DNA of 36,026 nt. It comes from Elusimicrobiota bacterium (GTDB lineage Bacteria; Elusimicrobiota; Elusimicrobia; 2-02-FULL-39-32). Below the pieces are notes generated by a model, which saw nothing but the letters and a program-made list of their open reading frames with translations, was not told the DNA's origin and did not search any database. The stretch covers positions 89,034 to 125,059 of the forward strand of contig JACPBF010000005.1 of assembly GCA_016180425.1 (NCBI GenBank), given 5' to 3'. The first letter of the stretch is position 1. Every line of letters starts with the position of its first letter. Made by a program: the position numbers and the translations under genes. Positions 3-13,217 of the stretch are shown one piece after another.

Positions 3-1346
3 TTCTCCGGCGCTCAAGGTTTGGTAGAAGATTGTCTTCATCGAAGGACTTTCTTATCTTCACTTCCATTTGGAGGACATCTTTCGCCTAGACGGAATCT
101 CATGTTGGGCAGTACCGCCGCAGCGCTTGCGCCAATTTCCCGTCCATGGCAAGGGACAAAGAGAGCAAGCATCTCATTAGTAAGCCAATCCAAAGAGCCT
201 GCTCACATAGATATTTTCGACAAAGATACTCCTCGCCATGGAATTGTGATTGGAACAACAGGCTCCGGAAAATCCTTCTTGGCAAATATGCTTCTTATCT
301 CGCTACTTTCTGATCCAAAAATCCGCGCTCTTGTGATAGATATCGGCGGAAGTTTTAAAAGAATTACTAATGTATTAGAAGGAGCTTACTTTGACGTTAA
401 ACTGGATGAAAAATACGCTATGAACCCTATATTGCCTAGATCATCCATGATGAAATCAGATGGAACGCTTGACCCAGAAATGTTGGGAGCGCAAACAAGC
501 CTGCTTGCAAAAATTACGCAATGCTCTTCCGGCCCGGCCAGACTTGTGCTAGAGAAAGCTATTGAGGCAGCATTTCTTTCTAAAGATGAGCCCTTGTTAT
601 CGGATATTCTATACTCTTTAAGAAATAACGCTTGGCAGGAAAATCTTAAAGAGCAGGCGCAATTGATTATCAGCCAGCTCCTCCCCTACTGCGAAGGAGT
701 GTATTCTCTTCTGCTCTCCCATCCATCCCGTATCCGTCCGTTTGAAAAGCAAATTACCACTTTTGATTTGGCAGGTTTGAAAGAACACAGAGATTTACAG
801 AATATCGTAGTGAACGTAATTGCCTTTACGATGAGCCGGCAACTGGAAGATAAATCTATCAAGAAAGTTGTAATTATAGATGAAGCGTGGGAATTCTTTA
901 ACGACCCGCAATCTGCAGATTTAATCGCAAGGCTTTACCGTCAAGCTAGAAAACAAAACGCAAGCATTATTACTCTTTCCCAATCTCCTATAGAATTTTT
1001 GAACTCTGCTTGCGCGTCTGCAATTCTTTCCAATAAACATTGGTGTCTTGCTCTTAAGATGACCAGCGGACATGATATGCTGGAAAAGTTTGGGTTTTCT
1101 GACCAAGCAATCCAAAAATCTAAGAGCATGCAGATGAGTCCAAAATCTTTTTCCGAAGTCATGGTTAAGTTTGGCGAGAATGCGCCCCGTATTTTACGAG
1201 TCTCCCCTATCTCTGAGGAATACTGGATCGCCACAACCAATGCTGAAGAGTGCACCCGGGAAGAAAAATTTAGAAAAGAACAAAATTTAAACCAGTTGGA
1301 ATCAATTCTAGAAATGGCAAAAGCTGAGCCAGTAGTTGAATGGTGA
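3..1346 (+). CDS. VirB4/TraC-family conjugation ATPase (C-terminal part, 5' end beyond window)
   Basis: The reading frame is open from the first complete codon at 3, so the gene starts upstream; a TTG at 21 is only an internal codon. About 447 residues are visible, out of roughly 800 in the family. Numbering from that TTG codon, a Walker A motif GTTGSGKS lies near residues 78-85 and a Walker B stretch VVIIDEAWEFF near 285-295, followed by the RQARK helix and a TraC-like tail. VirB4/TraC ATPases sit on the cytoplasmic face of the inner membrane and power pilus assembly and substrate transfer in type IV secretion. It is followed after 3 bases by the VirB6-like gene, consistent with one tra operon. 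Confidence in the family is high; the F-type (TraC) assignment is an inference from the tail. Confidence 0.9.
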   Translation, partial: FSGAQGLVEDCLHRRTFLSSLPFGGHLSPRRNLMLGSTAAALAPISRPWQGTKRASISLVSQSKEPAHIDIFDKDTPRHGIVIGTTGSGKSFLANMLLISLLSDPKIRALVIDIGGSFKRITNVLEGAYFDVKLDEKYAMNPILPRSSMMKSDGTLDPEMLGAQTSLLAKITQCSSGPARLVLEKAIEAAFLSKDEPLLSDILYSLRNNAWQENLKEQAQLIISQLLPYCEGVYSLLLSHPSRIRPFEKQITTFDLAGLKEHRDLQNIVVNVIAFTMSRQLEDKSIKKVVIIDEAWEFFNDPQSADLIARLYRQARKQNASIITLSQSPIEFLNSACASAILSNKHWCLALKMTSGHDMLEKFGFSDQAIQKSKSMQMSPKSFSEVMVKFGENAPRILRVSPISEEYWIATTNAEECTREEKFRKEQNLNQLESILEMAKAEPVVEW

Positions 1347-1349
1347 TAT

Positions 1350-3482
1350 ATGAAAGCTAAGTTACTCATGGCCGTCTTATTCAGTTTATTGACCGTCACC
1401 AACAGTTATGCGCTTTTTGGGAGCGGAGTTACATTCGACCCAATCGCAAAAATACAACGATTGATTATTATCGCTGAGCAAAAACTCCAAACATTGAAAA
1501 CATTCCAGCTGGTTAGGGAGACCATCAATAATGTAAGAACCGCAGAAAGAATGTACGAGATGGGAAAACGAGGATATGAAAGATTAAAAGACCCTGATGA
1601 GTGGAGAGACCTCAAACGTTTTGCAATGAGAAGAATGGAGATGCTTCTTGATCCCGATACAGACCCCTACAATTCCTCTCTCGCAAGAATCATCGGCTCT
1701 CTGGACAGCGCGTTGGATAACTACCTTATGGCTACTAACACATTAGAAATTATTTCTACAAAGATCGACAGCATAGATTCTCGAACAGCAAGTGCTCTGG
1801 ACTCTGTTCCCTTTGTCGGTAGATGGGATAGAGGAGAAAAATGGGCAAAGAATTTTGAGGGGCGCGCTTATGCGAAAAGATACGGCACTCCGCAGGATGT
1901 GGTCAAAAATGCCGAATCAAAATACAAAGATTTTGAGAAGGAAGCGGAGAATATAAAGGCAGAAAAGAAAACTTTGGATGACGACTCCAAAAAACTAAAC
2001 GCGGCATTATTAAAATCCCAAGACTCTTTTGCACAATTGCGTTTTGAGATGGAAAACAGAAGCGGCAAGGACGGCGCTGAAGCTGGAAAATTAAATGCTT
2101 TGCAGGTTAGAAAGGCAAGCCTCGAACAACTAGAACGGGCAAAGGACGATTTAGATAAGAGGAAAATCGATCTAACAAATCGTGCGGGATTTTTGGCAAG
2201 CAATATTCTTGAACAAAAAGACCAGATAGATAGAGTTACTGGAATTTTAGGATTTGAAGGCACGTTAAGAGAGTCTTGGGTTAAAGTTTCTCTATCTTCT
2301 ATGGCAGAGTTGTCCAATCACCTTGAAGTCATTGAGAATATTTTCTTTCAACTGTTAGTAGTGACATTAGCCCTTGGGCTTCTATGGCACGGTATCTGCG
2401 TCTATCAGGGAAGGGAAGTGGGAATCCCTCACGATATAATCGTAGGTGTCATCGGCGCATTTCTATTCCTTTTTCCGGCAAGTCCCATTGCGATACATAA
2501 GATTACCCGTATGTTAGCCATTTGGATTGACGGATTGACTGCCCTATTTGCTAAGGAGGCTGGGAATCCCGTTAATTCACTCAGCTGGATGCTTCACAAC
2601 ACGATGGGAGCCTTAAACCAAATCGAGGGAGACAAATCTTCCATGCTTGGGAAGGTGGTTGGGAGCATTGTAAAAGGAACCGGGCCATTGGCTTTAATTC
2701 ATACCGCCTTTTTTGGAGCTGTTGGTTTTTTAGTTTCTCTCGCTGGCACTATATCTGTCTTTGGCAGCCTGCTATTGAGAAACCTGTTATTCTGGGTGCT
2801 CATGATTCTCTCGCCGGCATTTATTTTTCTAGCGCCTCTGCCTTACGCAAGAAAAAAACTTCTTCCGGCATGGGGAGGGATGGTGTACAGCACGGTTCTC
2901 TGGGGGCCGGTGATCTACATACTCCTAATGGCAGCGAATCTTATGATTCAAAAGATGACAGATATTGCGGTTGGCACTTATTCTTCTAACCCTCTAATGG
3001 ATGTGTTTGTAAATGCTTTTTCGGGATCGTTGCTAGTCTTTGCAATGGTGCTTGCTCCTTTAATGGCTATTGGAATCACTATGGGAAGCTTTGGCGCAGC
3101 ATCATCCGTTATGGGATCCGTATCGGGCTCGATGGTTGCGGCAGGAAGCTCATTTGCGGTGCTGGGAAGCGGCCTCGGAATGAGAACTGCAGGCGGCGCC
3201 CTATGTAAAAGCGCTGGGACTTTAAACAGAAGCGGCAATTTCTTGACTAATCATGGATTTAAACGGTCAGGAAAGAACATAAAGAATATCGGCGCAAAAG
3301 TTATGAATGCTGGTTTTAAAGTAGGCGAAGCGGGCAAATTTGTTTCTTCTCTGGGAGCAAACATAGCCAAAAGAAATACGGGACTAGAAAAAGTTATTCC
3401 AAAGAAATCTACCGCGGTAAACGGTTTCAACAACAGCAAAGATAACAATCAAAACAAACATCAAAACAATGGAAACAACTAA
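1350..3482 (+). CDS. Probable VirB5/TrbJ-VirB6/TrbL fusion, type IV secretion channel protein
   Basis: This 710-residue protein has three parts. Residues 1-21 are a signal peptide ending near NSYA, followed by LFGSGVTFDP, a start reminiscent of TrbJ/VirB5 minor pilus proteins. Residues about 190-320 are highly charged and should form long coiled coils. Residues about 325-590 contain six or so hydrophobic segments and resemble the polytopic VirB6/TrbL inner-membrane channel component. A Gly/Ser-rich and basic, Asn-rich tail (590-710) follows. VirB5 and VirB6 homologues are often neighbouring separate genes, so a fusion is the simplest reading. The start is ATG, 3 bases after the VirB4 stop. 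The 3' end overlaps the next gene by 14 bases. The VirB6-like part is more secure than the VirB5-like part; this is a judgement from motif and topology. Confidence 0.65.
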   Translation: MKAKLLMAVLFSLLTVTNSYALFGSGVTFDPIAKIQRLIIIAEQKLQTLKTFQLVRETINNVRTAERMYEMGKRGYERLKDPDEWRDLKRFAMRRMEMLLDPDTDPYNSSLARIIGSLDSALDNYLMATNTLEIISTKIDSIDSRTASALDSVPFVGRWDRGEKWAKNFEGRAYAKRYGTPQDVVKNAESKYKDFEKEAENIKAEKKTLDDDSKKLNAALLKSQDSFAQLRFEMENRSGKDGAEAGKLNALQVRKASLEQLERAKDDLDKRKIDLTNRAGFLASNILEQKDQIDRVTGILGFEGTLRESWVKVSLSSMAELSNHLEVIENIFFQLLVVTLALGLLWHGICVYQGREVGIPHDIIVGVIGAFLFLFPASPIAIHKITRMLAIWIDGLTALFAKEAGNPVNSLSWMLHNTMGALNQIEGDKSSMLGKVVGSIVKGTGPLALIHTAFFGAVGFLVSLAGTISVFGSLLLRNLLFWVLMILSPAFIFLAPLPYARKKLLPAWGGMVYSTVLWGPVIYILLMAANLMIQKMTDIAVGTYSSNPLMDVFVNAFSGSLLVFAMVLAPLMAIGITMGSFGAASSVMGSVSGSMVAAGSSFAVLGSGLGMRTAGGALCKSAGTLNRSGNFLTNHGFKRSGKNIKNIGAKVMNAGFKVGEAGKFVSSLGANIAKRNTGLEKVIPKKSTAVNGFNNSKDNNQNKHQNNGNN

Positions 3483-3978
3483 AGAAACGATTATTTCAGT
3501 CGCAAGAGAAAATAGAATCTGGAAGTGGGTCACTATTATTTTGAGCATTGGAACTGCTTGTTCTGCATTGACCTCCTATTACCTTCTTCATAAACCGCAG
3601 CAGGCTTGGGTGGTGACTGAGGACGGAAAAATATCAAACAACAATGGAAAATATTTTAGCTTCGAAATTGAAAAAGCCGTACAGAAAGCCGTAGACACCT
3701 ACTATATATCTTCGCCTGATAGAGAAAATCTTCTGGAACATTATTTTGAAAAAACGCTGTCGGAATCAGCAAAGAATTTCAAGACAAAAGACCGGTTCAT
3801 TTCATTCAAAATAAATAAGATTGCGGAAAGCGGTACAAAAATTCTAGCGCAAGGAACACTTTATAGAGAGAATGAAACGGATGAACGCTTAGACCTAATC
3901 CTTGATCGAATAGAGCGGTCTGATATCAATCCCTTCGGTCTGGTTGTAAGTTCGGCAACATCTCAGAAAACGAATTAG
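3469..3978 (+). CDS. VirB8/TraE-like type IV secretion protein
   Basis: The 169-residue product has a short cytoplasmic N-terminus, one transmembrane helix at about residues 20-42 and a periplasmic domain of about 125 residues. This is the topology of VirB8 and of F-type TraE, which form the inner-membrane arches of the secretion machine. Sequence similarity is not strong enough by eye to choose between them. It is somewhat shorter than typical VirB8 proteins (about 220-240) and closer to TraE (about 190). The gene overlaps the VirB6-like gene by 14 bases and ends in TAG, 22 bases before the ORF6N gene. Topology and position support the call. Confidence 0.5.
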   Translation: METTKETIISVARENRIWKWVTIILSIGTACSALTSYYLLHKPQQAWVVTEDGKISNNNGKYFSFEIEKAVQKAVDTYYISSPDRENLLEHYFEKTLSESAKNFKTKDRFISFKINKIAESGTKILAQGTLYRENETDERLDLILDRIERSDINPFGLVVSSATSQKTN

Positions 3979-4000: not shown

Positions 4001-4519
4001 ATGACCAAACATTTAGTGCCGCAAGAAACTATAGAAAGAAAAATACATTCCTTCCGAGGCAAGAAAGTAATGCTGGATCGTGATTTAGCAGAACTCTATG
4101 GGGTAACCACAGGTAACCTTAATCTTGCCGTAAGAAGAAATATAAATAGGTTTCCGAAAGATTTTATGTTCCAGCTAACTATAAGAGAAATCAAGAACTT
4201 GATATTGCAATCTGCAAGATCAAGATGGGGAGGGGTTCGAAAATTCCCCTATGCGTTCACTGAGCAAGGAGTAGCAATGCTTTCTAGCGTATTGAATAGC
4301 GGGCGCGCAATAGAAATCAATATATTGATTATGCGTACCTTCATTAAATTGAAAGAGGTCTCTTATATCCATCGTAATGTTTTGCTGAAATTGAACGCTC
4401 TAGAAAAAAAGATCGAAGACCATGATGAAAATATTGAATCTCTATTCGAAGCTATTCGACAGCTCATTGACGCTCCCAAACCAAGCAAGCACAAAATCGG
4501 ATTTGTGCAGAATAACTAG
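4001..4519 (+). CDS. ORF6N-domain DNA-binding protein inserted in the tra operon
   Basis: The 172-residue protein begins with an ORF6N domain (about residues 8-95). The visible signature is FRGKKVMLDRDLAELYGV followed by NLAVRRNINRFPKDFMFQLT and later YAFTEQGVAMLSSVL. Residues 125-155 form a helical, coiled-coil-like region. ORF6N proteins occur in phages, plasmids and bacterial genomes and are regarded as DNA-binding antirepressor-like or regulatory proteins. It is not a secretion component, so its place between the VirB8-like gene and the next tra gene marks it as a passenger or a regulator of the operon. Gaps are short on both sides (22 and 11 bases). The domain call is confident; the biological role is unknown. 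Confidence 0.88.
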   Translation: MTKHLVPQETIERKIHSFRGKKVMLDRDLAELYGVTTGNLNLAVRRNINRFPKDFMFQLTIREIKNLILQSARSRWGGVRKFPYAFTEQGVAMLSSVLNSGRAIEINILIMRTFIKLKEVSYIHRNVLLKLNALEKKIEDHDENIESLFEAIRQLIDAPKPSKHKIGFVQNN

Positions 4520-4530
4520 GAATAACTCCA

Positions 4531-5286
4531 ATGGATCAATTGGCAACTGTTACGAACACAAAAACATCACGCTCCTGGGTTCCTCTGGAAATCTATAAGG
4601 AAAAGAGTTTGATAACGCCGGCTTGGACATGGCATGCCTTGGTTTTGATAAGTATTTTGGCTTTTTTCTCAGTTGTATTTATTTGTGAACGATATCAGAA
4701 AGGCGGAATTAAGATGACTTTTATTAAGAGTTTATCATTCAAAAATAATATTAAAAGTAAGAGGTATCAATCCTTAAAATTAAAATTTCCCAAACTCTCA
4801 AAATCAAAGATACCGGTGGTTGGTGAAACTAAAACTGGAACAGAGGGCACAGGCCGAAGCCGAACAATGATTAATCCAATCTCAATTAAACAACAAACCG
4901 CAGTGTCTAATGACAGTACAGAAAAACAAAATTTTATTCCTGTTGAAGTCCAAAATCGATTAGAAATAATTAGGAATGACCCTAAAAGAATTTACCTCGA
5001 TAAAAAAATAATAGCCGGCGAATTAACTTTCTTCATAAGAAATGTTTCTGAATTTGGCATCGAACTTTATGTCTCCAATGGAGAAAACTCAAGCAAAACA
5101 TACTACTTCCCAAAGGTGGAAGTGGGGGGGAGCGTTTCTAAATTCTATGGCACTGTTCTTCCCCCTTCCGGCAGCTCTTTCGGATGGGTTATTGTTCCAA
5201 ACGTAAGAACGAAAAACAGATTGAGTTTTCAATTTTCTTCAGTTGGCGGCGAAACAAGAACTGAGAGCATAAAATTAGAATGGTAA
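4531..5286 (+). CDS. Unrecognised single-pass membrane protein of the transfer region
   Basis: I do not recognise the family. The 251-residue product has about 32 N-terminal residues in the cytoplasm, one hydrophobic helix at about residues 34-53, a basic and then Ser/Thr-rich linker (about 60-145) and a C-terminal segment (about 150-251) that alternates hydrophobic and polar residues as beta-sandwich domains do. It lies between the VirB8-like and VirB10-like genes, the slot often held by VirB9/TraK, and overlaps the VirB10-like gene by 7 bases. A role in the secretion core is therefore likely by position. Because the following VirB10-like protein lacks its own membrane anchor, this protein could supply the inner-membrane connection; that is speculation. 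Confidence 0.6.
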   Translation: MDQLATVTNTKTSRSWVPLEIYKEKSLITPAWTWHALVLISILAFFSVVFICERYQKGGIKMTFIKSLSFKNNIKSKRYQSLKLKFPKLSKSKIPVVGETKTGTEGTGRSRTMINPISIKQQTAVSNDSTEKQNFIPVEVQNRLEIIRNDPKRIYLDKKIIAGELTFFIRNVSEFGIELYVSNGENSSKTYYFPKVEVGGSVSKFYGTVLPPSGSSFGWVIVPNVRTKNRLSFQFSSVGGETRTESIKLEW

Positions 5287-6041
5287 AAAACTTAATAAAA
5301 GCTTTTATAATTCTTGCGGCATTAACTTCAACTTGTTTTGCCAATAAAAATTCACCCTATAGTTATGCGCAAGAAATAACCACTGATTCCTCTAAAAACG
5401 TTATTAATATTTTTATGCCCGAAGATAATTGGTTTCTTTCCGCCGGCCAAGAAATTAAGGCAACGATTCAAAACGCCATATTTTCTTTTAACCTTCAAAC
5501 GCCCATTATAGCGATTGTAGATGAACCTGCCGTCTGCTTAAAAAATGGTTTGATAATACTGCCAAAAAAGACACGCCTGCTTGGGACAGCAGAGGTATTA
5601 AAGTCTGACGATAGGGTCAACATCCGATTCAATATCGCCGTCCTCCCGAACGGACGTGAATTCGAAATTAATGGAATAGCTCTCTCACCAGATGGATCAG
5701 CAGGAATCAAAGGAGAAGTTAAAGAGTATAAGGATATCCGATTGATGTCCTCCGCTTTGGGAGGCGCCATGAGCGGGATTGGGCAGGCAATGGTGGCCAC
5801 TCTTCCCGGACAACCGATTGTATCGGGCGCAATCGGAGGAGCGTTAACTCAAGGAGCGCAGGAAGCGCAGACAATTTCTAACCAAAAAGCAGATGTTTCT
5901 ATATCAGTTCCGCCGTTTCAAAAGACTTTGGTATTTTTATCTCAAAGGTTATCTTTAGATAAACACTTAACGAACAAACAGCCAGTAAATAAAGAAAAAG
6001 ATCAAGATGAAGAAAAACCAAAGGACTGGAAGAAAGAATAA
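5280..6041 (+). CDS. Short, secreted VirB10/TrbI-like protein
   Basis: The 253-residue product has a cleavable-looking signal peptide (residues 1-21, ending TCFA). It then shows the VirB10/TrbI C-terminal pattern: FLSAGQEIKATIQNAI, later LIILPKKTRLLGTAEV, then AVLPNGREFEINGIAL with SPDGSAGIKGEV. The Gly/Ala-rich stretch at about 158-195 corresponds to the antenna region that crosses the outer membrane in VirB10. Family members usually carry a cytoplasmic N-terminus, a transmembrane helix and a Pro-rich linker before this domain; all three are missing here. The charged Lys/Glu tail (about 235-253) is unusual. It would form the outer part of the secretion core complex. Family membership is fairly clear; how it connects to the inner membrane is not. 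Confidence 0.75.
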   Translation: MVKNLIKAFIILAALTSTCFANKNSPYSYAQEITTDSSKNVINIFMPEDNWFLSAGQEIKATIQNAIFSFNLQTPIIAIVDEPAVCLKNGLIILPKKTRLLGTAEVLKSDDRVNIRFNIAVLPNGREFEINGIALSPDGSAGIKGEVKEYKDIRLMSSALGGAMSGIGQAMVATLPGQPIVSGAIGGALTQGAQEAQTISNQKADVSISVPPFQKTLVFLSQRLSLDKHLTNKQPVNKEKDQDEEKPKDWKKE

Positions 6042-6043
6042 AA

Positions 6044-6607
6044 ATGGACAAAGAAACAATAAAATCAATCGAGAAAAAAATAATCTCTAGAATCAGTCTC
6101 TATCTCGTAGGAGTTTTGGTAAGTTTCTATGTTGAATCCTTGACTATAAAATATCATCTCCCTCCAAGAACTGGATTTATAGCCTTGATCTTATTTTCCA
6201 TTTACCTTTTTACCTACTCAAAGATGAGCGGTCTTTTAGCTTCTCTTTCATTGTCCTGGGCAATGACATGTCTGCTTACACTTTCTTCAACCCCAGTATG
6301 GATAACATTTGCCGCAGGAATCTCTGTTCTATTTATAGTGGAGCCATTATTCAAAAAACCAGATATCTCAACGCGAAATCTTCCCAAAATTGCCGCGCCT
6401 CCTGTGTCGGAAGATGAATATTACAAATACTCAAAGCAGGGAGTTAAAGATGGCAAAATATTTCTAGGAATCGATCTGGAAAAAAATAAGCCGGTCTGGA
6501 TGGATCAAAAATGGCTTACAGAACATATCCAAGTGGTGGGAATTACTGGCTGCGGAAAAACGCAATTCCTCTTAAGCCTTGCATACCAATCGATGATAAG
6601 AAAGTAG
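6044..6607 (+). CDS. Type IV coupling protein (VirD4/TraD-like), N-terminal part up to an in-frame TAG
   Basis: The 187-residue product carries several hydrophobic segments between about residues 15 and 105 and a Walker A motif GITGCGKT near 165-172, then ends at TAG (6605-6607). Coupling proteins are inner-membrane hexameric ATPases that pass the relaxase-DNA complex to the secretion channel. The expected continuation after Walker A lies in the same frame directly after the stop and begins GVMYVSGKP, the usual beta-strand after the P-loop helix. The two pieces therefore make one ordinary coupling protein with a single stop codon inside. Alone this piece has no Walker B motif. It is either a nonsense-mutated gene, a gene needing readthrough, a real split protein, or a sequence error. 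Confidence 0.8.
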   Translation: MDKETIKSIEKKIISRISLYLVGVLVSFYVESLTIKYHLPPRTGFIALILFSIYLFTYSKMSGLLASLSLSWAMTCLLTLSSTPVWITFAAGISVLFIVEPLFKKPDISTRNLPKIAAPPVSEDEYYKYSKQGVKDGKIFLGIDLEKNKPVWMDQKWLTEHIQVVGITGCGKTQFLLSLAYQSMIRK

Positions 6608-6613
6608 GGCGTT

Positions 6614-7912
6614 ATGTATGTAAGCGGGAAACCGTCTTTTTCGGACTGGAAAACTTTTTCTTATCTTGCGAATAATTCTGGAAGAGGAAAAGAACTATAT
6701 TACTTCAATCCATTGGATCCAAATTCTGACAGCTTCAATCCAATCGCCCCTGTAAGTGGTAAAACCACAGAAATTGAGGTAGCCCACCAGATTATGCGCG
6801 CTATTGGGAGAGAGTCGCCATCCTCTCAAGAACGGCTGGATGCGTTTCACAGAGTCGTAGACTTTGAACGCATTCTGCACCTGTCTTCCATACTGGTTGA
6901 ACTCAAAAGGCCTTTTACTCTTGAAGACTGCTACTATTTTTACGCAGATAATGCCGCGCGTGAACATGTCCTAACCGAAGCTGATAAAACTGGGTTGTCA
7001 AAAATGACTGGACTATTGCGAAATCAACTGAAAGGAGAAATTCTAAAAGTTTCTAATCCTGCGGGACTTACCTCGTCTCTACGTCCATGGCTCGCGCACC
7101 CTCTAAGCAAGCAGGTGAACACCTACCAACCGGATATTAGAATACCAGATTTGTTTCTAAACGGCGGACTAGCTTACTTTTCCCTATCACCGGGAAGAAT
7201 CCATCAGCAGGCGAATGCTCTTGGCAGGCAAATCATCGCTCAAGTTCTCGCCTGCTCTGAAACCCTTAGAGAAAAAATCACCCCCAGACCTCCCATGCTT
7301 TTAATTTTGGATGAGTTCTCTGAATATCTTACCCCTGCCTTTTCAACATTGATCTCACAAGCGCGGTCGGGAAGACTCTGTTTAATACTCGCCCTGCAAG
7401 ATTTTGGACAGCTTCTTAGAATTGAAGGAATTGATAAGAGAGCGTTCAGCGAAAATGTCACCAACAATGCTGCAACTAAGATTTTTTTCTCTACCCTCTC
7501 GTCTGAAAGCGCCGAGAGAATGAGTGATATTCTAGGCACTAAAAGTGTCTATAAAAAATCTCAAAGCTATTCATTTGAATGGCAGGGAGATATTGCCTAT
7601 ACAGGGCTCTCCCGAAGGGAAGGCGAAGAATTCATAATCCACCCCAACTGGTTTAAAACAAACAAATCTTTTCTGGCAGCGGTGAAATCTCGCAATGGAT
7701 GTTCTGTAATTCGAACTGTTCTCTTCAAAACAAAAGGAAAAATGGGCGCGAGAGCGAGGTATTACAAGAAAAACGTAGAAACTACTGAGAAACCTTTAAA
7801 TCTTGCAGAAATATCTAACACTGATGCTTCAAAGAAATATTTAAACAAGGGAAAAGAAAAGTGGGACAGCCACTGGTTAAAAAATAAGGCGGATGTAAGC
7901 CAAACTAGCTGA
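6614..7912 (+). CDS. Type IV coupling protein (VirD4/TraD-like), C-terminal part after the in-frame TAG
   Basis: This 432-residue frame starts at an ATG two codons after the TAG that closes the preceding ORF and is in the same frame. It contains the all-alpha insert (about residues 45-145), a Walker B motif MLLILDEFSEY near 228-238, the following SQARSGRLCLILALQDFGQL segment typical of TraD/VirD4/TraG proteins, and a basic C-terminal tail. Without the upstream half it lacks both the membrane anchor and Walker A, so it cannot work alone as a coupling ATPase. No clear Shine-Dalgarno sequence precedes the ATG. That argues against an evolved independent start and for a recent nonsense change or readthrough. 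Two bases separate it from the next gene. Confidence 0.82.
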   Translation: MYVSGKPSFSDWKTFSYLANNSGRGKELYYFNPLDPNSDSFNPIAPVSGKTTEIEVAHQIMRAIGRESPSSQERLDAFHRVVDFERILHLSSILVELKRPFTLEDCYYFYADNAAREHVLTEADKTGLSKMTGLLRNQLKGEILKVSNPAGLTSSLRPWLAHPLSKQVNTYQPDIRIPDLFLNGGLAYFSLSPGRIHQQANALGRQIIAQVLACSETLREKITPRPPMLLILDEFSEYLTPAFSTLISQARSGRLCLILALQDFGQLLRIEGIDKRAFSENVTNNAATKIFFSTLSSESAERMSDILGTKSVYKKSQSYSFEWQGDIAYTGLSRREGEEFIIHPNWFKTNKSFLAAVKSRNGCSVIRTVLFKTKGKMGARARYYKKNVETTEKPLNLAEISNTDASKKYLNKGKEKWDSHWLKNKADVSQTS

Positions 7913-7914
7913 TT

Positions 7915-8820
7915 ATGAACACAAAATTATATAGCGAAAACATAATTGATACCGTGACTCTCCTCAAACTTGAAGATACTGTTTTAGATAAGCAATTCAC
8001 TATTACAAATCCTTTACAGTATGAAAAGTTCAATCATAAATTGATATATACGCTTGGGTGTTTAAAAGCCCTAAATTTTAATCATATTTCATTTATAGGA
8101 AGAGACCTCGACAGTATTTCTGAAGAGGAAGCTTACAATCTACTCTGGCACGAATCAATACCCGATTCTGATCTAACGTTCCAGCGATTGAGAAAACTCT
8201 GTAACAAAGGAGTGATAGTTCCTTGGCGGTCTTGGGATACAAATTGGATTTTAACAAGACACACTTGCAAGACACCTGTAAAGAAAAAAGGGGCATTCTA
8301 TTTTCTTGGACGTCAAGGAAGGAAATGGCTAAAAAGAAGATATGCTTTTTCAGTTCCGCCCGCGCCTGTAGAAGAACTTTATTTAACTGGATTCCCTCTT
8401 TCTAGATGGTTATCCGCATCTTCCTGCGCTCTCACTCTTGAACAAGAAGGATGGAAACTTGTGCCAATAAGCCAAGCATGGCAAAAAAGAACCGATACCC
8501 CCTCACCCCTATTTCGTCCAGACTTCATTGTTGTAAAGGAAAAAATAGCCGCGTTTTATTTATTTGATTCTCCATTTGGGTTGCGTTCCGAATTTTTAGC
8601 AGCGCACGTCAGCAGAGGACTTAACTTTTTAAGTTCAGATAGTATTGCTGTCATTCTAACCCATACAAAAGAAGCTTTTACTAAGTTAATGAATAAACTG
8701 GAAAATGGGTCTATCAATGAAAATAAGAACAGGATATTTGTGGGCGGCCTTGAATTCTTCCAGAAAAGCCGCGGTCACTGCAAATTGACTAATTCAGATG
8801 GAGAAACAATTGTTTTATGA
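7915..8820 (+). CDS. Winged-helix protein resembling the replication-relaxation family
   Basis: The 301-residue product has a probable winged-helix domain (about residues 40-150): the pattern TFQRLRKLCNKGVIVPW followed by YFLGRQGRKWLKR matches the recognition helix and wing of the plasmid replication-relaxation family. The second half (about 170-290) contains FRPDFIVVKEKIAAFYLF, which looks like the core strands of a restriction-endonuclease-like fold, although a complete set of catalytic acidic and lysine residues is not obvious. Members of that family are found beside conjugation and plasmid-replication genes and are thought to act at the origin of transfer. It follows the coupling-protein gene by 2 bases and overlaps the next small ORF through ATGA. 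The assignment is from pattern only. Confidence 0.5.
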   Translation: MNTKLYSENIIDTVTLLKLEDTVLDKQFTITNPLQYEKFNHKLIYTLGCLKALNFNHISFIGRDLDSISEEEAYNLLWHESIPDSDLTFQRLRKLCNKGVIVPWRSWDTNWILTRHTCKTPVKKKGAFYFLGRQGRKWLKRRYAFSVPPAPVEELYLTGFPLSRWLSASSCALTLEQEGWKLVPISQAWQKRTDTPSPLFRPDFIVVKEKIAAFYLFDSPFGLRSEFLAAHVSRGLNFLSSDSIAVILTHTKEAFTKLMNKLENGSINENKNRIFVGGLEFFQKSRGHCKLTNSDGETIVL

Positions 8821-10047: not shown

Positions 10048-10087
10048 ACCTTTGTACATAAAAATAATAAAGGAGGAAATAAATAAA

Positions 10088-11581
10088 ATGAACTCAATTA
10101 AATCTTCAATAGGATCGCTTGCTACAAGGATTCTAAAGAAAAATGAAGAAAATGAATCAGGCAAAAGTAGTTTTAAGGATTCCAAAGACAAACCTATTCT
10201 TACTGCTCATTTTAAGAATTTGGTTGACTTGGTAGAGTCTGAAGGGAAACCCGCATTTCTTATTAAAGAAGATGGTGTTCCTAGGGTTTTATTCAAAATA
10301 GAACTAGATGGTAAACCCTGTTTTCCACCGCCTAAAGATCAAATTCCATGGCTTCTGCCTAGAGCAGATAATGTGATCGAATATTTCAATATTTCAAAAG
10401 CGCAGGAACCAGCAATTGTAGATCACAATCTCTTTGAAGACCTTGTCACATACCATAAAGGAATCTCAGAGCTTCCGAGTGAATCTTATTACGTTCTCCT
10501 TTCAGCATGGGTTATGCACACATACCTCATGGAATCATTTCACTACTCCCCGATACTCTTATTCTTTGCTGTTCCAGAAAGAGGTAAGTCTAGAACCGGT
10601 AAAGGGTTAATCTATGTCGCGTATAGAGGAGTTCATACAGAAACTCTCAACGAAGCGAATCTGTTCCGCTGGTCAGAAAACCATAAGGCTAGCCTCTTTT
10701 TAGATGTAAGGAATTTATGGCAAAAAGCGGAGCGGCGCGGATCTGACGACATATTATTATCACGGATTGAAAGAGGGTGTAAAGTAAGCAGAGTTTTATG
10801 GCCAGAGAGGGGAGCATTTAGAGATTCAAAGCATTATGATGTGTTTGGCCCCACCGTCATTGCAACAAATGAGGCGGTTCATCCTATTCTGGATACGCGG
10901 TGCATCTCTATTACCATGTCCGATAGTGTCAAAAACTTTGAAAAGAGCGTGAAACCGGAAGTAGCCCTCCCATTAAAAGAACGGCTTGTAGAATTTAGGC
11001 TGAGACATTTAGGAGAACTCCAACCCAAAGTGCCTAAACCTGCAAGAGGACGATTAGGAGACATTCTTAAACCCATCTATCAAACAATTCAAATGGTTTG
11101 CCCTAGTAGAAAAGATGAATTTATAAATCTAGTTGAACAAATTGAAGAAGGGAAAAAATTAGAAAAATCTCTGAGTTTAGAAGCTCGGTTGATTCAAGTT
11201 ATAGAGGAATTACAGTATAGGGTTACCAATGGGTTTGTATCGGTTACGGAGATCACAGAAAAATTGAATTTGGGAAAGCCAGAAATGGAGTGGTTAACTC
11301 CCCATAGAATAAGCAGAAAATTAAAAGCAATTGGATTTGATTGGGGATTGAACGCAAATGGAACTGCTGCCATTGCTTATAACCAAATAAAACTAGACAG
11401 ATTAAAAGAACACTATGGGTTGAATCAAACGCCAGTAAAGCCAGTAACGCCAGTAATCCGCGAGATTAAGCCCGAGCCAATGAACGACCATGCTGGCTTT
11501 ACTGGCGATACTGGCTTTTCATCTAATGAAGGGAAGGAACTCGAAGACCAAGAGGAAATAGAAGATAGCGTGGATTTATAA
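10088..11581 (+). CDS. P-loop ATPase/helicase-like protein, probably for element replication
   Basis: The product is 497 residues from ATG 10088, which has AAGGAGG at 10070-10076; an upstream TTG at 10052 in the same frame lacks such a site. A P-loop-like segment AVPERGKSRTGKG (about residues 160-172), an acidic Walker-B-like SLFLDVRN, and PTVIATNEAVHP resembling an AAA+ sensor-1 strand indicate a nucleotide-binding core. The region about 365-450 looks like a winged helix, with VTEITEKLNL and HRISRKLKAIGFDW. This resembles helicase/primase-associated proteins of plasmids and phages, but I cannot name a family. The C-terminus encodes TPV/KPV and TGD/TGF repeats that arise from iteron-like DNA (11431-11515). 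A replication role is inferred from this and from position. Confidence 0.6.
   Translation: MNSIKSSIGSLATRILKKNEENESGKSSFKDSKDKPILTAHFKNLVDLVESEGKPAFLIKEDGVPRVLFKIELDGKPCFPPPKDQIPWLLPRADNVIEYFNISKAQEPAIVDHNLFEDLVTYHKGISELPSESYYVLLSAWVMHTYLMESFHYSPILLFFAVPERGKSRTGKGLIYVAYRGVHTETLNEANLFRWSENHKASLFLDVRNLWQKAERRGSDDILLSRIERGCKVSRVLWPERGAFRDSKHYDVFGPTVIATNEAVHPILDTRCISITMSDSVKNFEKSVKPEVALPLKERLVEFRLRHLGELQPKVPKPARGRLGDILKPIYQTIQMVCPSRKDEFINLVEQIEEGKKLEKSLSLEARLIQVIEELQYRVTNGFVSVTEITEKLNLGKPEMEWLTPHRISRKLKAIGFDWGLNANGTAAIAYNQIKLDRLKEHYGLNQTPVKPVTPVIREIKPEPMNDHAGFTGDTGFSSNEGKELEDQEEIEDSVDL
11431..11515. repeat. Three direct and three inverted GCCAGTA motifs at 9-bp spacing
   Basis: GCCAGTA occurs at 11431, 11440 and 11449, each 9 bp apart. 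The reverse complement follows at 11491-11497 (TGCTGGC, one mismatch), 11500-11506 and 11509-11515 (TACTGGC), also 9 bp apart. The two arms are about 33 bp apart and can pair at roughly 21 of 25 positions. The block lies inside the 3' end of the replication-type gene. It resembles iterons of a replication origin, or a long hairpin in the mRNA. Confidence 0.8.
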
Positions 11582-11614: not shown

Positions 11615-11836
11615 ATGAATGATGTAATCGAAAAGCGCTTTTTAACAATGGACGAACTAGTGGAATACCTATCCATTAGCAAACGTTCCATTTATCATTT
11701 AATTAGCGAGAGGGAACTTCCCTTTATTCCCTTATCAAAACGCTTATATAGATTTGATCGTACCGCGATAGATAAATGGATGGTAAAGCGACAAATTCAA
11801 GCTTTGGACAACCATTTAGAAACTATAGAAATCTAG
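11615..11836 (+). CDS. Excisionase-like helix-turn-helix protein
   Basis: The 73-residue product is almost entirely one MerR/excisionase-type winged-helix domain (HTH_17): FLTMDELVEYLSISKRSIYHLI is the helix-turn-helix, followed by ELPFIPLSKRLYRFDRTAIDKWM, the wing and the last helix. Proteins of this size and pattern beside integrases act as recombination directionality factors (excisionases) or as regulators of transfer genes. Here it lies 235 bases upstream of the integrase with a small HTH gene between them. The domain call is secure. The excisionase role is inferred from position. Confidence 0.8.
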   Translation: MNDVIEKRFLTMDELVEYLSISKRSIYHLISERELPFIPLSKRLYRFDRTAIDKWMVKRQIQALDNHLETIEI

Positions 11837-12071: not shown

Positions 12072-13130
12072 ATGGGTATATTTCTGCGTTCTGATTCTCA
12101 GTATTATTGGATGGATTTTAAACTCGATAGTAAGAAACAAATCAGATGTTCTACTCGGACAAAAGACAGAAAATTGGCGCTGCAGATTTACCACACTAAA
12201 AGAAGTGAGTATCAAAAGATAGAACATGGATTTGATCGCAAGAAAATAAAACTCAGTGAATTAATGAATGACTATTTAGGCCTTTATTCAAAGCATAATA
12301 AGTTAAGTTACAGCAACGATGTTTTGGCAGTTAATAGAATGTGTAAATTTTTTTCCACAATTATGGCTCATGAATTAACTACTGAACAAATAGAACAATA
12401 CAGAATTAAACGCTTGTCCACAGTTTCAAAATCTACTGTTAATAGGGACATGTCTCTTTTAAAACATATATTTAATAAGGGGATTGAATGGGGTAAGATC
12501 ACCAGTAATCCTGTTGAAAAGATAAAATTTTATTCGGAAAAAGAAAACAAAAGAATCCGTTACTTAGAAAAAAATGAAAAAATAAAATTGCTTGGCGCTT
12601 GCGCATTACCAACTAAAAGACTTGTATTTTTTGCTCTCTCAACAGGGATGAGACAAGGAGAGATTTTAAATTTAAAATGGTCGGACATTGATTTTAACAC
12701 CAGACTAATTAAAATAAGTCACTCTAAAGCTGGAAAGATTCGATACGTTAATATACCCTCCGATCTGGAAAATATGCTAAAATCTACACCTACAATTTCA
12801 GAATATGTTTTTGGCACACCGAAAGGAAAGGCAAAATTCAGTTTATATCGAAAACCCTTTATAAAAGCCATAAAGAATTGCGGCCTCTCAGGTTTACATT
12901 TCCATGATTTACGGCATGACTATGCATCCACGTTGGTTATGAAGGGTGTAGATATAAAGACAGTTTCAGAATTATTAGGACATAGCACTTTAGTTATGAC
13001 AGAACGGTACTCTCATTTATCAAAGGAACACAAACAAGCAGCGGTAGAGTTGCTTCCGAAGGGCTTATTTTATCACGCTGGTATCACGTTGGATAAAAAT
13101 GAGAATTTGATTTTAGCAGAAACAAGCTGA
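12072..13130 (+). CDS. int: Tyrosine recombinase (integrase) of the element
   Basis: The 352-residue product has an N-terminal arm-binding region (about 1-55), a SAM-like core-binding domain (about 58-150) and a catalytic domain (about 165-325). All catalytic positions are visible: R194 in STGMRQGEIL, a lysine at 219 or 222 in HSKAGKIRYV, H278 and R281 in FHDLRHDYAS, H304 in LLGHSTLVMTERYSH and the nucleophile Y313. It should integrate and excise the element at the neighbouring tRNA-Lys gene. GGAGGTG at 12055-12061, inside the preceding gene, is its ribosome site. The stop lies 14 bases before the tRNA. Transcription probably comes from the 11842 promoter and would run into the tRNA. It appears intact. 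Confidence 0.96.
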   Translation: MGIFLRSDSQYYWMDFKLDSKKQIRCSTRTKDRKLALQIYHTKRSEYQKIEHGFDRKKIKLSELMNDYLGLYSKHNKLSYSNDVLAVNRMCKFFSTIMAHELTTEQIEQYRIKRLSTVSKSTVNRDMSLLKHIFNKGIEWGKITSNPVEKIKFYSEKENKRIRYLEKNEKIKLLGACALPTKRLVFFALSTGMRQGEILNLKWSDIDFNTRLIKISHSKAGKIRYVNIPSDLENMLKSTPTISEYVFGTPKGKAKFSLYRKPFIKAIKNCGLSGLHFHDLRHDYASTLVMKGVDIKTVSELLGHSTLVMTERYSHLSKEHKQAAVELLPKGLFYHAGITLDKNENLILAETS

Positions 13131-13144
13131 TTTTCCAGTACAAA

Positions 13145-13217
13145 GAGCCCGTAGCTCAGTTGGTAGAGCACTCGACTTTTAATCGAGTTGTCGAGGGTTC
13201 GAATCCCTCCGGGCTCA
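13145..13217 (+). tRNA. tRNA-Lys (anticodon TTT), integration site of the element
   Basis: The 73-base sequence folds as a full cloverleaf: acceptor GAGCCCG/CGGGCTC with discriminator A, D arm with AGTTGGTA, anticodon stem CTCGA/TCGAG with loop containing TTT, and T arm GAGGGTTCGAATCCCTC. The 3' CCA is not encoded. The element lies on its 5' side, so its natural promoter has probably been replaced by element sequence. Its U34 is a classical substrate of the MnmA enzyme encoded at 31584. Confidence 0.98.

What the first reader, a model, noticed from the sequence alone, without database searches (positions are those of the whole stretch)
6599..6622. Single in-frame TAG right after the P-loop helix of the coupling protein
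The two ORFs 6044-6607 and 6614-7912 are in the same frame, and together make a full VirD4/TraD-like protein. The TAG takes the place of exactly one residue (IRK-stop-GVMYV), with no insertion or deletion. TAG ends other genes of this element (3976-3978, 4517-4519), so the codon is not globally reassigned. Possible explanations are a nonsense mutation that has disabled transfer, suppressor-dependent readthrough that keeps transfer low, a truly split T4CP, or a base-call error.
Basis: partly seen in the sequence, partly recalled or inferred. Interest (0 to 1): 0.6.

Follow-up and report, generated by a model that had tools for sequence, protein, structure and literature searches.

The report
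Stop-interrupted conjugation coupling-protein gene
A gene for the DNA-transfer motor of an integrated mobile element in an uncultured Elusimicrobiota bacterium is cut in two by one ordinary stop codon; all relatives are intact and the genome shows no way of reading the stop, so this is most likely an ordinary recent loss-of-function mutation or, less likely, an assembly error.

Summary
In detail: 6044-7912 is one reading frame of a VirD4/TraD-type coupling protein (T4CP), broken only by TAG at 6605-6607. The genome is an Elusimicrobiota MAG; the T4CP sits in a T4SS element with a tyrosine integrase. Being in frame is by itself weak evidence: 34 of 306 sampled genes have a long in-frame continuation, and the five other TAG pairs tested are different complete genes. 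Homology is decisive. Every relative whose sequence covers the junction, including a congener at 55% identity, runs through it as one ORF. The stop falls in a variable turn between the P-loop helix and the next strand. Readthrough is not supported: TAG ends 15% of sampled genes, RF1 is present, PylS is absent, and no CTA-anticodon tRNA was found by a pattern that recovers 41 of 41 known tRNAs. The one CTA-bearing candidate is a tRNA-Glu-like RNA with an expanded anticodon loop whose relatives lack CTA. No relative is split. Best reading: a recent nonsense mutation in the only T4CP of the genome, splitting Walker A from Walker B and disabling transfer; a consensus error cannot be excluded without reads. 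Ordinary. The side find, the tRNA-Glu-like RNA beside cytochrome c genes, deserves its own look.

The parts
6044..6607 (+). 5' part of the T4CP gene: predicted N-terminal membrane helices plus Walker A/P-loop (GITGCGKT), ends at TAG
   Evidence: model of the fragment alone is low confidence, pLDDT 55
6605..6607 (+). in-frame TAG at codon 188, in the turn between the P-loop helix (172-185) and the next strand (190-194)
   Evidence: alignments to DotL 6sz9 and TrwB 1gl6
6614..7912 (+). 3' part of the T4CP gene: Walker B region (LLILDEFSEY), TraG-D_C/TrwB domains; possible restart ATG at 6614
3..1346 (+). 3' part of a VirB4/TraC-type T4SS ATPase that begins before the window; open throughout (794 aa in the genome)
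5280..6041 (+). VirB10/TrbI-like T4SS protein, just upstream of the T4CP
7915..8820 (+). unknown 301-aa protein downstream of the T4CP; a 43% identical homologue lies downstream of the intact T4CP of congener G001
11615..11836 (+). AlpA/HTH_17 helix-turn-helix (excisionase-type) gene
12072..13130 (+). tyrosine recombinase (integrase), open frame
13145..13217 (+). complete tRNA-Lys(TTT) next to the integrase; no att-like exact repeat of 13 nt or more of it found within C2:70034-125059

Best explanation
The gene is a single T4CP gene of an integrated T4SS-bearing element that has been interrupted by one nonsense codon. Translation should yield a 187-aa fragment with the membrane helices and Walker A. 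At best, a weak restart at ATG 6614 adds a 432-aa fragment with Walker B but no Walker A. Neither should be able to form the working hexameric ATPase, so the element should be unable to export DNA. It is the only lesion seen in the element genes that I could assign, which suggests that it is recent or still polymorphic. Shown: one frame, one stop, intact relatives, no second TraG-D_C protein in the genome. Inferred: loss of transfer, recency, and that the stop is real rather than a consensus error.
For: One stop and no indel. Every relative that covers the junction reads through it as one ORF: G001/MGUU01000013.1 at 55%, Elusimicrobia relatives at 33-37%, Bdellovibrionales and others at about 25%. 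The aligned column is variable in relatives, so it is not a conserved special codon. TAG is an ordinary stop: 47 of 306 sampled genes, with in-frame extensions no longer than after TAA, and the other five in-frame TAG pairs are separate gene families. RF1 is present at 441 bits; PylS is not above cut-off; no CTA tRNA. It is the only TraG-D_C protein in the genome. The stop separates Walker A from Walker B.
Against: No reads, so a consensus error cannot be excluded. The downstream 432 codons are fully intact and the neighbouring element genes are open, which also fits an error or a within-population polymorphism. The closest relative is only 55% identical, so the age of the stop cannot be measured.
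Confidence: 0.68

Rival explanations
1. The TAG is a consensus or assembly error, or a minority allele, in a draft metagenome-assembled genome; the real gene is intact.
For: Draft genome in 43 contigs, whose nearest relatives are MAGs; a single-base change with everything else open would look the same; no independent copy of the element was found in the viral collection to check against.
Against: No positive sign of error: no long homopolymer at the site, no frameshift, neighbouring genes open. Substitution errors in short-read consensus are usually rare (general knowledge).
Confidence: 0.22
2. Regulated or leaky readthrough of TAG makes a small amount of full-length T4CP and keeps transfer low.
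For: The codon falls in a turn whose residue varies among relatives, so any inserted amino acid might be tolerated; no frame loss downstream.
Against: No CTA-anticodon tRNA by a pattern with 41/41 sensitivity; RF1 present; PylS absent; TAG terminates 15% of sampled genes and no other gene with an internal TAG was found; no relative carries the stop. Background readthrough without a suppressor remains possible, but nothing shows selection for it.
Confidence: 0.05
3. A genuinely split T4CP: two proteins, the second starting at ATG 6614 by termination-reinitiation, that assemble into one ATPase.
For: ATG 6614 lies 6 bases after the stop, in frame, with a modest SD-like match of -5.5 kcal/mol.
Against: Six of 44 internal ATGs score at least as well. 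The methionine is not conserved in relatives. No relative is split. The break is inside the nucleotide-binding domain, between Walker A and Walker B.
Confidence: 0.03

Closest known systems
VirD4/TraD/TraG-type type IV coupling proteins (TrwB 1e9r/1gl6, Cag-beta 8dol, DotL/IcmO 6sz9)
   Same: Pfam TraG-D_C/TrwB domains, Walker A and B, N-terminal membrane helices; Foldseek top hits are Cag-beta, TrwB and DotL
   Different: The gene is interrupted by a stop; sequence identity to these solved T4CPs is only about 12-19%
T4CPs of other Elusimicrobiota MAGs (MGUU01000013.1 at 55%, JACPOW010000011.1 at 35%)
   Same: Same family; a homologue of the 7915 gene also lies downstream in G001
   Different: Intact single ORFs
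Nonsense-mutated transfer genes in decaying integrative elements (general knowledge, not tested against named cases)
   Same: A single lesion in a transfer gene of an integrated element
   Different: No further decay seen in the element genes that could be assigned; no PF03432 relaxase found in the genome

Membership tests
Type IV coupling protein (VirD4/TraD) | TraG-D_C / TrwB_AAD_bind domain | tested here: met
   9.6e-15 and 2.1e-10, above curated cut-offs, on the 3' part
Type IV coupling protein (VirD4/TraD) | Walker A and Walker B of one NTPase domain in a single chain | tested here: not met
   Both motifs are present in the frame but separated by TAG; met only if the stop is read through or an error
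Type IV coupling protein (VirD4/TraD) | T4CP fold | tested here: met
   Read-through model (pLDDT 71, pTM 0.69) matches Cag-beta and TrwB, E 3e-15 and 7e-14; a property of the reading frame, not proof of a product
Type IV coupling protein (VirD4/TraD) | Lies within a T4SS locus | tested here: met
   VirB2-like pilin, VirB4/TraC ATPase and VirB10/TrbI upstream
Integrative and conjugative element | Integrase plus T4SS plus relaxase plus att repeats | tested here: inconclusive
   Integrase and T4SS present; no relaxase recognised (only PF03432 searched genome-wide); no att repeat of 13 nt or more around tRNA-Lys
Suppressed or recoded TAG gene | CTA-anticodon tRNA or pyrrolysine system | tested here: not met
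Suppressed or recoded TAG gene | TAG at the same place conserved in relatives | tested here: not met
Pseudogene by nonsense mutation | Intact homologues, single lesion, no conserved replacement start | tested here: met
Pseudogene by nonsense mutation | Lesion supported by reads | not testable with these tools
   no reads held

The most novel reading that the evidence does not exclude
The TAG is a deliberate low-level readthrough site that throttles the only coupling protein of the element, so that conjugation becomes dependent on rare suppression.
Probability: 0.03. Interest if true: 0.6.

Novelty: already known. Interest (0 to 1): 0.14.

Why it matters
It matters little by itself: single nonsense codons in transfer genes of integrated elements are a usual form of decay or polymorphism, or of draft-genome error. 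It does give a clear worked case that in-frame neighbours separated by one stop are common by chance, and that homology, not frame, decides. If the rare readthrough reading were true, it would be a new way of controlling conjugation.

Tried and rejected
Close-relative scan of genome contigs with the single protein found nothing; the alignment query worked. No copy of the element in viral contigs; listed plasmid hits are only about 23-27% identical. Suppressor tRNA: the Rfam tRNA search scored 150 of 228 candidates, so a CTA pattern search was added. Its 42 hits compare with 38 in the control and hold no CTA tRNA. The one tRNA-like hit, C5:104912-105033, was followed and rejected as a suppressor: its stem register, which covaries across relatives, puts CTA outside the anticodon position, and the loops of relatives G004 and G006 lack CTA. 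att search around tRNA-Lys found nothing. PHROGs, NCBIfam and Pfam gave no identity for the 710-, 301- and 509-aa element proteins, nor did the PDB for the 509-aa one. Model of the first fragment alone is poor. Literature searches gave no direct precedent.

Full report
What is there. The frame 6044-7912 is open except for TAG at 6605-6607. Its first part carries predicted membrane helices and Walker A, its second the Walker B region and the TraG-D_C/TrwB domains of type IV coupling proteins. A model of the frame read through at the stop has the T4CP fold, with Cag-beta, TrwB and DotL among the nearest solved structures. The stop is codon 188, between the P-loop helix 172-185 and strand 190-194. 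The sequence alignment to DotL and TrwB shows the same turn.

Setting. The window is C2:89034-125059 of a 2.6-Mb draft genome. Around the T4CP lie a VirB2-like pilin and a 794-aa VirB4/TraC ATPase, VirB10/TrbI, an AlpA-like regulator, a tyrosine integrase and a complete tRNA-Lys. G+C is 40% against 31% in a chromosomal sample, which fits a horizontally acquired element. No relaxase was recognised and no att repeat was found, so calling it an ICE is not proven.

Is the in-frame pair more than chance? By frame alone, no. In a 475-kb sample 34 of 306 genes have an uncovered in-frame continuation of at least 60 codons. Five other TAG-separated pairs were tested, and each is two different genes of different families: GT1/GT9 glycosyltransferases, RapZ/EIIA, HrcA/GrpE, sugar transferase/O-antigen ligase, OmpA/TPR. 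Homology, however, is decisive. All relatives that cover the junction, from the same genus to Bdellovibrionales, run through it as one ORF. Two fragments cut by contig ends (L146, L149) do not cover it.

Readthrough tests. TAG ends 47 of 306 sampled genes, and the in-frame extension after TAG is no longer than after TAA. RF1 is present above its cut-off; PylS is far below its own. The 41 tRNAs confirmed by ARAGORN include no CTA anticodon. None of these is a tRNA with a CTA anticodon by ARAGORN.

The one candidate that had to be excluded. C5:104912-105033 is a tRNA-like gene with T-CTA-AA at normal spacing from the T loop. Relatives in the same family have the same acceptor stem and T arm but quite different loops without CTA. 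The anticodon stem covaries (CTGTT/AACGG, CCGCA/TGCGG, CTGCA/TGCAG), which favours a register in which the loop is 23 to 58 nt long and CTA is not the anticodon. It is found in 4 of 341 genomes of the phylum by an exact pattern, all in one family. It lies beside c-type cytochrome or cytochrome-maturation genes in the three genera examined. It looks like a tRNA-Glu-derived RNA that no longer decodes: a separate find, not a suppressor.

Split-gene test. ATG 6614 has a modest ribosome-site score that six of 44 internal ATGs match or exceed; the methionine is not conserved. The split would separate Walker A from Walker B. No relative is split.

Conclusion. Most likely a recent nonsense allele of the only TraG-D_C coupling protein in the genome; second, a consensus error in a draft genome. 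Only reads decide between these. Readthrough control and a true split are unlikely. The loss of transfer is inferred, not shown.

Noticed in passing
G000:C5:104912-105033 (-), loci L054/L101; relatives L102 (G001), L109 (G004), L110 (G006): tRNA-Glu-like RNA gene (Rfam tRNA 39.5 bits, CCA encoded in three of the four) with a 23-58 nt, mostly hairpin-forming loop in place of the anticodon loop and, in G004, also a D-loop hairpin. Acceptor and T arms nearly identical across genera, anticodon stem covaries. 4 of 341 phylum genomes, one family. Possibly a non-decoding tRNA, e.g. a Glu donor for haem synthesis or a regulatory RNA (guess).
   Followed up: partly
L100:8008-10629 and L110:856-1419: The tRNA-like gene follows a conserved monohaem cytochrome c-like gene ending LPKKETPYVGVK (52% identical between G000 and G006), with ResB/CcsA genes downstream in G000; in G004 it lies beside Rieske-, cytochrome b-, cytochrome c- and ResB-like genes.
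   Followed up: partly
window 10052-11581: 509-aa element protein with no match in Pfam, NCBIfam, PHROGs or PDB; could be a replication or transfer protein.
   Followed up: partly
window 1350-3482: 710-aa unassigned protein between VirB4 and VirB10, in the place where a VirB6-like protein might be expected.
   Followed up: no
window 4001-4519: ORF6N-domain (phage/element regulatory) gene inside the T4SS operon.
   Followed up: no
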